From Trichosporon coremiiforme (Eukaryota > Basidiomycota > Tremellomycetes > Trichosporonales > Trichosporonaceae): a stretch of DNA of 64,000 nucleotides. This document shows, one piece after another, positions 51,541 to 63,138 of the stretch. A program made the translations under genes and the position numbers. The stretch is from the NCBI GenBank assembly GCA_039545355.1, contig BCJJ01000004.1, positions 868,001 through 932,000 on the forward strand, written 5' to 3'. Below the pieces are notes generated by a model. That model worked only from the letters and a program-made list of their open reading frames with translations. It did not search any database and was not told where the DNA came from. The number at the start of each line of letters is the position of its first letter. The stretch's first letter is position 1.

Positions 51541-53166
51541 CTATTGCTTCTTGCGATGCTCCGGCTTGTGGTCCACCTCATGGTCGACGTGCACGAAGCA
51601 CCTGTCTACGTTCGGCAGCGCCTCAATCTGGTCCTGGAGATCCTGCGAGATGTCGTGCGCCTTCCATAACGGCATCTCGGGGTCACTGAGATGTCAGCTG
51701 AATCTGGGGCTCCCGTCAGCTAAGGGTACTTACAGAACAATGTCAACCTCGACGACATAGTCCGGTCCCGAGTGGTACACGCGCACAGTATCGACCTGCT
51801 TGATCTCCTCGCTGAACGTCATGGCCTTGTACGTGACCATGGACACGAACTCGCGCGGCGCAGCAATGCCGGCGAGGAACGTGAACTGCTCGTAGACTGT
51901 GCGTGCCCAGAGCCCTATCACGATGATGGCGAGCACCATGGCGCCGACGGGGTCGATCCACCACCTCAGCTTGGCGCCGCCCGCGTTCGAGAGGATGGAG
52001 AAACCGTTTGTAAACAGGTCGTTGCGGTGGTCTTCCCAGAGCACTTGGACTTGGGAGGAGGAGGAGCGGATCGCGTAGCAGTACAGGAACAGGAGGAGCT
52101 TAACCACTGGAACGTTTAGTTGAATCCGGACTCGACGTTGCTGAGAAGCAGAGGGAAGAGCCGTGAAGGAAGACAGAAGACTCACCCCACGCCACACACA
52201 CGCAGACCAGCGGGACGAGGTGGAACGCCTTCGTGTCACTGCCGTCGTGCGTGATCAGCTCCTGGAGCGATTGCACCTGGGGTTAGCTAGACGGCCGAGA
52301 GGTGAAGAGCTGTCTTCTACACTGTATGCTTCGACTCGGTGAAGGTTCTCACTCACCACAAGGATCACGTTGACCGCGCCCATGATAAAGCCGAAGACGA
52401 TATTGCCACTGATGTCAGCTATCGCCGTAGCACTCGGCTTAGGTGAACTGGAGGCTTATTCTCCTCCACTCAGTTGGGCGAAAGCAGACAGAAGAACCGG
52501 GGAAGGTGCACGTACACTGCGAGTTAGCGATGGAACAAGAACAAGGCTCACTGGTCTCGAAACGGGAGCCTCTAGCGGGCCATTTCTTCTCGTTCGCACG
52601 CTTCGAAGCACGGTGGGCACTCCACAGAATCAGGTTCGCGAAGGGGTCGACTGGATCAAGTTCAGTGCACATCTTCCTTATGATGGCAACTCACACACTG
52701 TGTCGTCAGCTTCTCCGCCCGATGTACAGCTGCTGATGGCATCATAACAGTGCCAAGGACACTTACCTGCGTCCACACAGCTCGCGAACAGGGCGAGCGA
52801 CAAGGATGAGATAGCAGCGTATAGCTGAATTGCGGCCAGACAGATATTTGCCGCAAAGCTGACGTTAACGGCGATCTTGACCTTGAGCGCTGCCGCTTCG
52901 CCGGCGTCCCGTGCTTCAGCGGTATGCACGTCCATGGGTTTGAGAAGGTTGTCGATGTGCTCGTTCTGGTTCTCGTAGAAGCTAGCGACCTTGCCCGCCT
53001 TGCGTTTGCGGAGGGTGTCGATCTCGGCCGCACTTTTCACCTTCTGCCGAAGAAGGAGGGGATCGCTCTCGCCTGCTTCGCGCGACACGACGGTGTCCAT
53101 GTTCATGAGCTCGAGGTCTACGTCGGGCGAGAGCACCGGCGCCGTCATCGTTGCTGTCGACGACAT
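51541..53166 (-). CDS. Cation diffusion facilitator, Mn-type (MTP8-11-like), with 1-nt and 3-nt exons
   Basis: Eight exons: 53166-52767, 52697-52695 (3 nt), 52650-52552, 52516 (1 nt), 52408-52357, 52276-52186, 52106-51734 and 51685-51541. They sum to 1164 nt, 387 residues. A polar N-terminus (residues 1-100) precedes TM helices (VSFAANICLAAIQLYAAISS). Across the micro-exons the text becomes CVDAVFDPFANLILW and RFETIGNIVFGFIMGAV, both conserved in CDFs. DHRNDLFTN carries the D-x3-D pair typical of Mn transporters in place of H-x3-D. WWIDPVGAMVLA and the C-terminal metal-sensing domain (DTVRVYHSGPDYVVEVDIVL) follow. It likely moves Mn2+ out of the cytosol into Golgi or vacuole; location is inferred. 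Confidence 0.85.
52516..52516 (-). other. Predicted one-nucleotide exon of the CDF gene
   Basis: Single T (sense) between an intron ending GCTAACTCGCAG (52551-52517, 35 nt) and an intron beginning GTACGTGC (52515-52409, ending GCTGACATCAG). It turns ACC-A plus T-GGC into ACC-ATT-GGC, giving the conserved ETIGNIVFG. Without it the frame hits a stop soon. Confidence 0.65.
52695..52697 (-). other. Predicted three-nucleotide exon of the CDF gene
   Basis: TGT (sense) between an intron ending GCTGACGACACAG (52766-52698) and one beginning GTGAGTTG (52694-52651). Inclusion gives DAVFDPFAN, and skipping gives DAVDPFAN; the Phe is conserved in CDF proteins. Confidence 0.6.
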
Positions 53167-62208: not shown

Positions 62209-63138
62209 ATGTCGACCATCAAGTCCGACCCCAAGACCTACATCTTCAACCACACCATGTAAGCTCACGCTAACCTTCAGAGCTGACGTCAGGGTACGCC
62301 TTCCTCGCACCCCGCTGCCCACCAAGAGACCGCAACACTAACACGCAGTTCCGCATCAAGGACCCCAAGGCGTCCTTGAAGGTATGCTCGACGTTTCCTG
62401 CGCAAGCTGACCCCAGTTCTACGAGGAGGTCCTCGGCATGGAGGTGAGTTGACTGGAAGACTGCTGGAACTGACGTCACAGTGCTTCCGCAAGTCGGACG
62501 GAGGCGACTTCACGAACTACTTCCTCGGCTACCCCAGCGGCTTTGGTGACAAGGCCAACGCGTCCAAGGAGGTCAAGGGCGACAACTTCACCAACCGCGA
62601 GGGCGTCCTCGAGCTCTGCCACAACTGGGGTACTGGTGAGTACGTGAGGTGTCAGGGTGATGGGCAGTAGCTGCGGAATGTGGGAGACTGTGGACGGGGG
62701 GAGGACCTCATGTCCGCCTCTGACGTATACTACGTGGATCACAGCTTGGAAAGAACCGTTCAGCTGACGATGCAGAGAACGACCCCAACTTCAAGGGTTA
62801 CGCCAGCGGAAACGAGGAGCCCGGCCGCGGCTTTGGCCACATCTGTATCGCCGTCGACGACCTCCAGGCCGCCTGCGCGCGCTTCGACGAGCTCGGCGTC
62901 AAGTTCAAGAAGCGTCCCGAGGAGGGTCGCATGCGCGTAAGTTTTAAGCAGGCCGAGCGAAGCGAGGGTTGTCAGACTGGATTCTTCTGTCAGGTTTCGC
63001 AGTCTCCGCCGTCTTCGCTCGGCCTTCCAGTTAGATGGTGCGTGACGAAGCTGACCCCAGCACATCGCGTTCATCTACGACCCCGACGGATACTGGATCG
63101 AGATCCTCTCCCGCAAGACTGGCCAGGAGGGCGCTTAA
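62209..63138 (+). CDS. GLO1: Glyoxalase I (lactoylglutathione lyase), with a 1-nt exon
   Basis: Seven exons: 62209-62258, 62293 (1 nt), 62349-62381, 62417-62443, 62482-62635, 62776-62936 and 63061-63138. They sum to 504 nt, 167 residues, a typical single-domain length. The enzyme turns the methylglyoxal-glutathione hemithioacetal into S-lactoylglutathione in the cytosol. It reads [67 protein letters not shown] and [12 protein letters not shown]. Zinc ligands can be assigned by family: Glu of LELCHN, His of GFGHI and Glu of YWIEIL, with HTM or Gln-equivalent region at the start. HTMFRIKD exists only if the single G at 62293 is an exon. Confidence 0.9.
62293..62293 (+). other. Predicted one-nucleotide exon of GLO1
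   Basis: Single G between an intron ending AGCTGACGTCAG (62259-62292, 34 nt) and one beginning GTACGCC and ending CACTAACACGCAG (62294-62348, 55 nt). It restores AT-G-TTC = Met-Phe in HTMFRIKD. The alternative acceptor TTCAG at 62280 would give a 13-nt exon and insert IADVR in the conserved motif. Confidence 0.65.

What the first reader, a model, noticed from the sequence alone, without database searches (positions are those of the whole stretch)
52409..52551. One-nucleotide exon in a CDF metal-transporter gene
Two introns, each with strong signals (GTGAGC...GCTAACTCGCAG and GTACGT...GCTGACATCAG), are separated by a single T. Including it gives the conserved ETIGNIVFG; leaving it out shifts the frame to an early stop. 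With this and the 3-nt exon, the gene's exons total exactly 388 codons. One-nucleotide exons are extremely rare (one is known from Arabidopsis APC11), and I know of none established in a basidiomycete yeast. An alternative acceptor at GATAG would insert TDIS and break a conserved motif.
Basis: partly seen in the sequence, partly recalled or inferred. Interest (0 to 1): 0.9.

Follow-up and report, generated by a model that had tools for sequence, protein, structure and literature searches.

The report
One-letter exon in metal-transporter gene
A metal-transporter gene of a basidiomycete yeast appears to carry a coding exon only one DNA letter long, which related species seem to share and which gene-finding programs tend to miss.

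Summary
The CDF gene on the minus strand (53166..51541) has exons of 400, 3, 99, 1, 52, 91, 373 and 145 nt, 387 aa plus stop; the 1-nt exon is T at 52516. A diverged second copy in the genome (82% identity) keeps the same T and splice signals, although its introns have drifted to about 45% inner identity. Against a profile of 77 other relatives the 1-nt model outscores 171 single-intron alternatives here and 148 in the homeolog; skipping truncates the protein. Named Tremellomycete models are damaged at this motif in 33 of 36; the 77 others keep TIGN, as do 7 of 7 unnamed cDNA-like proteins. It is not alone: of 19 motif-bearing homeolog pairs examined, 5 are 1-nt exons: this gene, glyoxalase I (this window, 62293), a metacaspase, a GPC1-like gene and Ran. 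No RNA reads could be examined. One-nucleotide exons are known in plants and, since February 2026, Fusarium; my searches found none in print for basidiomycetes. A new member of a known kind, unusually well conserved and recurrent.

The parts
52767..53166 (-). CDF exon 1 (400 nt)
52698..52766 (-). intron 1 (69 nt)
52695..52697 (-). 3-nt exon TGT, kept in the homeolog
52651..52694 (-). intron 2 (44 nt)
52552..52650 (-). CDF exon 3 (99 nt), ends ...GAGACCA
52517..52551 (-). intron 3 (35 nt), GTGAGC...GCTAACTCGCAG; also 35 nt in the homeolog
52516..52516 (-). one-nucleotide exon T (middle base of the Ile codon in ETIGN)
52409..52515 (-). intron 4 (107 nt; 101 in the homeolog), GTACGT...GCTGACATCAG
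52357..52408 (-). CDF exon 5 (52 nt), begins TGGCAAT
52186..52276 (-). CDF exon 6 (91 nt)
51734..52106 (-). CDF exon 7 (373 nt)
51541..51685 (-). CDF exon 8 (145 nt) with stop
62209..62258 (+). glyoxalase I exon 1 (50 nt), ends ...CACACCAT
62259..62292 (+). glyoxalase I intron 1 (34 nt), GTAAGC...CTGACGTCAG
62293..62293 (+). second one-nucleotide exon in this window, G, in glyoxalase I
62294..62348 (+). glyoxalase I intron 2 (55 nt), GTACGC...TAACACGCAG
62349..62381 (+). glyoxalase I exon 3 (33 nt), begins TTCCGC

Best explanation
The T at 52516 is a single-nucleotide exon, most likely constitutive, of a CDF (cation diffusion facilitator) gene. Shown by sequence: two complete short introns with GT donor, CTRAC motif and CAG meet at AG-T-GT; the T restores the frame and the ETIGN motif; both homeologs keep it. 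Inferred: the two introns are recognised one after the other by intron definition, since sites one base apart can hardly be bound at the same time; whichever intron leaves first still leaves a usable donor or acceptor for the other, so the site works like a recursive splice site that deposits one base. Also inferred: it is old, because protein models of relatives in Tremellales, Trichosporonales and Filobasidiales are damaged at just this point. Several of these models fit use of the GT four bases into a GTGAGT donor (4 nt gained, 1 nt missed, one residue inserted in frame). The same genome holds at least four more exons of this anatomy.
For: Gene model and frame. Homeolog with the same eight exon lengths and the same T. 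13-column identity across the T in introns with 151/338 inner identity. 1-nt model best in both copies: 593.5 and 591.2 bits against 583.7 and 581.4 for the best of 171 and 148 single-intron alternatives; skip 177.1 and 175.5. Relatives: canonical motif in 3 of 36 named Tremellomycete rows, 7 of 7 unnamed cDNA-like rows, and TIGN in 77 of 77 others (74 of 77 by the first pattern, the other 3 differ by E to T before TIGN). P0038, 96.8% identical to C. deuterogattii P0006, reads TIGN where closely related genome models such as P0007 read TSDGN. Four further genes with the same anatomy in both homeologs.
Against: No transcript of this species was seen. The motif itself is at chance frequency. The margin over the best single-intron alternative is 9.8 bits, real but modest. 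3 of 36 named Tremellomycete models are intact (P0002, P0004, P0006) and I cannot tell whether they use the 1-nt exon or lost an intron; 9 of the 36 rows belong to the C. gattii complex, so rows are not independent. 'cDNA-like' is inferred from open frames filling much of short contigs. The alignment to solved FieF structures is gapped near the site and does not decide.
Confidence: 0.92

Rival explanations
1. One intron only, from GTGAGC at 52551 to the ATAG acceptor 10 nt upstream of the CATCAG acceptor, giving ETTDISGN.
For: GT-AG, in frame, no stop, present in both homeologs.
Against: No CTRAC or CTNAY in the 46 and 45 nt ending there; adds three residues inside a motif that 77 of 77 other relatives keep; 11.1 bits worse in each copy (582.4 and 580.1); leaves the conserved CGCAGTGTACGTG block unexplained.
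Confidence: 0.03
2. One intron with the donor shifted four bases (ETSDGN), as in 10 relatives' models.
For: In frame in both homeologs; best-scoring single-intron alternative; TSDGN occurs in 10 of 120 relatives.
Against: In both copies here the shifted donor is GC followed by CTTG or TTGA, not GT; inserts a residue; relatives' cDNA-like proteins read TIGN in 7 of 7. The 10 TSDGN rows are Cryptococcus models only.
Confidence: 0.02
3. The 1-nt exon exists but is included only part of the time, and skipped or unspliced forms regulate the gene.
For: PMC4674806 recounts that an artificial 1-nt exon in the potato invertase gene was skipped in 33% of transcripts (Discussion).
Against: No evidence here either way; skipped and retained forms all meet a stop.
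Confidence: 0.1
4. Assembly error or decayed gene: a missing base in an exon mimics a 1-nt exon.
For: A one-base gap is also what an indel would look like.
Against: Both homeologs show the same anatomy with complete open frames; matched protein pieces are 84 to 100% identical; class-wide pattern at the same site.
Confidence: 0.01

Closest known systems
CYP621A single-nucleotide exon of Fusarium (PMC12940212; abstract, Results and Discussion read)
   Same: One base between AG and GT, needed for frame and a conserved motif, kept among orthologues, missed by annotation.
   Different: Different gene and phylum (Ascomycota); there 18 SRA reads span the joint, here no reads were seen.
APC11 and VPS55 1-nt microexons of plants (PMC4674806: abstract and Discussion read; PMC8831610: passages read)
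   Same: Single-nucleotide nuclear exons, deeply conserved, absent from reference annotations.
   Different: Unrelated genes; plants; validated by RNA-seq, RT-PCR or reporter assays.
Recursive splice sites
   Same: Acceptor and donor abut and are thought to be used in turn (recalled; discussed in PMC4674806).
   Different: Those add no base and are described for large introns; here one coding base is added between introns of 35 and 107 nt.
Single-base exon of placozoan mitochondrial cox1 (PMC5436844; listing and start of abstract only)
   Same: One-base exon.
   Different: Mitochondrial, so not the nuclear spliceosome (recalled).

Membership tests
Nuclear single-nucleotide exon | One nucleotide flanked by two complete spliceosomal introns (GT-AG) | tested here: met
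   same in the homeolog
Nuclear single-nucleotide exon | Inclusion keeps the frame and a conserved motif; omission shifts the frame | tested here: met
Nuclear single-nucleotide exon | Conserved in related genes at DNA level | tested here: met
   homeolog only; no other orthologue DNA was available
Nuclear single-nucleotide exon | Transcripts of the gene contain the nucleotide | not testable with these tools
   no reads of this species; relatives' cDNA-like proteins are only indirect
Nuclear single-nucleotide exon | Minigene or mutation test of the flanking sites | not testable with these tools
   bench work
CDF cation transporter | Cation_efflux (PF01545) and ZT_dimer (PF16916) domains | tested here: met
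   76.6 and 46.2 bits, above cut-offs
CDF cation transporter | Transports a divalent metal (some relatives are named CDF manganese transporter) | not testable with these tools
   names are annotations only

The most novel reading that the evidence does not exclude
Single-nucleotide exons are a recurrent and ancestral feature of Tremellomycete genomes rather than a freak: at least five unrelated genes, including the P-loop of Ran (a 1-nt exon followed by a 5-nt exon), carry them in both subgenomes, and for three of them class-wide protein models bear the matching errors. Public Cryptococcus, Kwoniella and Trichosporonales proteomes would then hold systematic errors at such sites, and the lineage would be a tractable model of how a spliceosome handles AG-N-GT.
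Probability: 0.82. Interest if true: 0.75.

Novelty: new member of a known kind. Interest (0 to 1): 0.66.

Why it matters
The papers found describe very few one-base exons, and none in a basidiomycete (searches, open-access library only). A genome with five, two of them within one 64-kb window, makes the question of how abutting splice sites are used in turn testable in a small fungus. It also gives a practical signature (donor shifted by 4 nt, one extra residue in a conserved motif) for finding and correcting wrong gene models.

Tried and rejected
Motif frequency as evidence: rejected. Hits against reversed control: 94 against 108 for donors GTRNGT, 153 against 136 for GTRNGC, 50 against 82 for GTRAGR.

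Homeolog-paired screen. GTRNGT: regions of 75 of 94 hits were compared; 10 homeolog pairs kept the motif (one 23-base match between unrelated places left out). 3 are 1-nt exons (this gene, L061/L097, L063/L064); 7 are not: ordinary exon starts (L033/L045, L077/L099, L085/L100) or other motif matches (L040/L079, L047/L089, L055/L082, L060/L098). GTRNGC: 100 of 153 hits were listed; 6 pairs picked by eye were examined, 2 are 1-nt exons (glyoxalase I; Ran), 4 are not; a seventh, C1:579364 with C3:1807003, was seen but not fetched. GTRAGR: 3 pairs picked by eye, 0 are 1-nt exons. In all 5 of 19 pairs; not an upper bound.

Relatives, results on both sides. Metacaspase: an insertion at the site in 15 of 26 named Tremellomycete rows and in 0 of the other 94; so 11 of 26 are normal, among them Mrakia. 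GPC1-like: canonical in 7 of 33 named Tremellomycetes (among them Phaffia, Vanrija albida and three Cutaneotrichosporon rows), 2 of 3 unnamed (the third, P0265, does not cover the site) and 84 of 84 others. So the pattern may not reach every order of the class. Rows were sorted by hand from record names; six genera were checked in the taxonomy, the rest is recalled. 'Others' include unnamed rows of unknown origin. Seven divergent metacaspase hits were left out of the profile. The residue of the 3-nt exon (pattern for V/I-F-D): 8 of 36, 7 of 7 and 59 of 77, weaker because the others vary there.

The intron after the Ran 1-nt exon has its nearest CTRAC 40 nt from the end, so its branch site is atypical or unrecognised.

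Species: a two-copy 42.0-Mb genome resembles hybrid Trichosporon (passages of PMC6642101); not established.

Full report
THE THING ITSELF. The gene lies on the minus strand, 53166 to 51541. Read with eight exons it gives a 387-aa protein with Cation_efflux and ZT_dimer domains above Pfam's cut-offs. Exon 2 is 3 nt (TGT) and exon 4 is 1 nt (T, 52516); the introns beside the T are 35 and 107 nt. A 35-nt intron is ordinary here: 41 introns of six gene models run from 33 to 207 nt, and 36 of them have CTRAC near the 3' end (one Ran boundary set right).

HOMEOLOG. The 42.0-Mb genome holds a second copy at C2:1126544-1128158, 82% identical in DNA; matched protein pieces are 84 to 100% identical. It has the same eight exon lengths, a first intron of 35 nt and a second of 101 nt. 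Inner intron identity, pooled over seven introns, is 151 of 338 columns, yet CGCAGTGTACGTG is identical across the T.

ALTERNATIVES. Single introns that keep the frame without a stop number 43 in the window copy and 35 in the homeolog (GT-AG, GC-AG and AT-AC, within the limits set). None of those printed reads ETIGN; 8 and 6 of them lose the GSRF stretch before it. Against a profile of 77 other relatives the 1-nt model ranks first in both copies (593.5 and 591.2 bits), 9.8 bits ahead of the best of 171 and 148 GT/GC-AG alternatives; skipping gives 177.1 and 175.5. The runner-up needs a GC donor; the ATAG alternative has no recognisable branch motif in either copy.

RELATIVES. The 120 best relatives (of 1968 found) were sorted into 36 named Tremellomycete rows, 7 unnamed jgi/lgn rows on short contigs that fall among them, and 77 others. 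The canonical motif stands in 3 of 36, 7 of 7 and 74 of 77; the remaining 3 of 77 also read TIGN, with a change before it. 9 of the 36 rows are of the Cryptococcus gattii complex (8 damaged); of the other 27, 25 are damaged. The damage looks like what a gene finder does when it cannot use a 1-nt exon: TSDGN in 10 rows, as expected if a donor A|GTGAGT is moved by four bases; loss of the IGNI stretch; or inserted residues. In Vanrija pseudolonga (P0003) the insertion TSEPMQGPAKLGRPSQAFANDTVGN reads to me as a retained 63-nt first intron with a GCTAAC-type end, then T, then a correctly removed second intron; this is my back-translation, not a tool result. The three intact named rows are P0002, P0004 and P0006; P0006 is named C. 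deuterogattii R265, and a paper on that genome's re-annotation says its reads were mapped with 'microexon search' (passage of PMC8022950). Whether the R265 model uses a 1-nt exon was not seen.

NOT ALONE. I searched the genome for the composite motif and kept places where both homeologs hold it. The motif itself is at or near its control frequency. Of 19 homeolog pairs examined, 5 have coding sequence on both sides that a 1-nt exon joins in frame: this gene; a metacaspase (T, C8:1404585); a DUF2838, glycerophosphocholine-acyltransferase-like gene (A, C9:351714); glyoxalase I (G, window 62293); and Ran (G, C5:1805017, followed by a 5-nt exon GCAAG). Best-matching solved structures run through the joint without a gap for glyoxalase I, Ran and metacaspase. 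Profiles of other relatives again put the 1-nt model first for the metacaspase (442.4 against 433.6 bits, 67 alternatives) and the GPC1-like gene (524.1 against 517.7, 62 alternatives). Named Tremellomycete metacaspases carry an insertion at the site in 15 of 26 rows, the other rows in 0 of 94; GPC1-like proteins are canonical in 7 of 33 against 84 of 84. Many of these insertions (DDESDHE, LFGDLCY, LFGNLCY) are those that a donor shifted by four bases would cause. In the metacaspase the homeologs differ at the last base before the exon (C or T); with the T exon both codons, CTG and TTG, are leucine.

MECHANISM. With one base between AG and GT, exon definition is hard to imagine. Intron definition with the two introns removed in turn is likeliest; the same has been proposed for Arabidopsis APC11 (Discussion of PMC4674806). 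Which intron leaves first is unknown. This part is inference.

LITERATURE. Searches covered the held open-access library. They show nuclear one-nucleotide exons in plants (APC11, VPS55) and in Fusarium CYP621A, and a one-base exon in placozoan mitochondrial cox1 (listing only). None concerns a basidiomycete. The Fusarium paper calls itself the first case for a fungal gene. Subscription papers and preprints were not searched.

LIMITS. No RNA was available, and no orthologue DNA outside this genome. The argument for age rests on protein models sorted by hand, whose rows are not independent. The case for a real 1-nt exon in this gene does not need it: the homeolog and the frame carry that.

Noticed in passing
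window 62209-63138 (+), exon at 62293: Glyoxalase I gene in the same window with its own one-nucleotide exon (G), also in the homeolog at C2:1117725-1117741; full frame of 167 aa.
   Followed up: yes
window 52695-52697 (-): The 3-nt exon TGT of the same CDF gene is kept in the homeolog; 28 of 36 named Tremellomycete models lack the matching V/I-F-D pattern.
   Followed up: partly
G000:C5:1805017 and 1805128-1805132 (L115): Ran gene: a 1-nt exon followed by a 5-nt exon (GCAAG) inside the P-loop GDGGTGKTT, the same in the homeolog L116.
   Followed up: partly
L104 around C8:1404585 and L105 around C9:351714: Metacaspase and GPC1-like genes with 1-nt exons; named Tremellomycete proteins carry matching one-residue insertions.
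   Followed up: partly
L106 (G000:C48:75850-76600) and L104:2300-2600: Dense runs of intron-like units (CTRAC...AG followed after 0 to 8 nt by GTRNG) in stretches that look non-coding, the second just 3' of the metacaspase stop.
   Followed up: no
window 7490-37248: This block matches the homeologous C2 region in the opposite orientation to its flanks, as an inversion between subgenomes would.
   Followed up: no
L119 and L120 (C5:695100-695500, C17:627010-627420): A gene that looks like ribosomal protein eL37 (recalled, not searched) may have a 6-nt exon GGTAAG after ATG.
   Followed up: no
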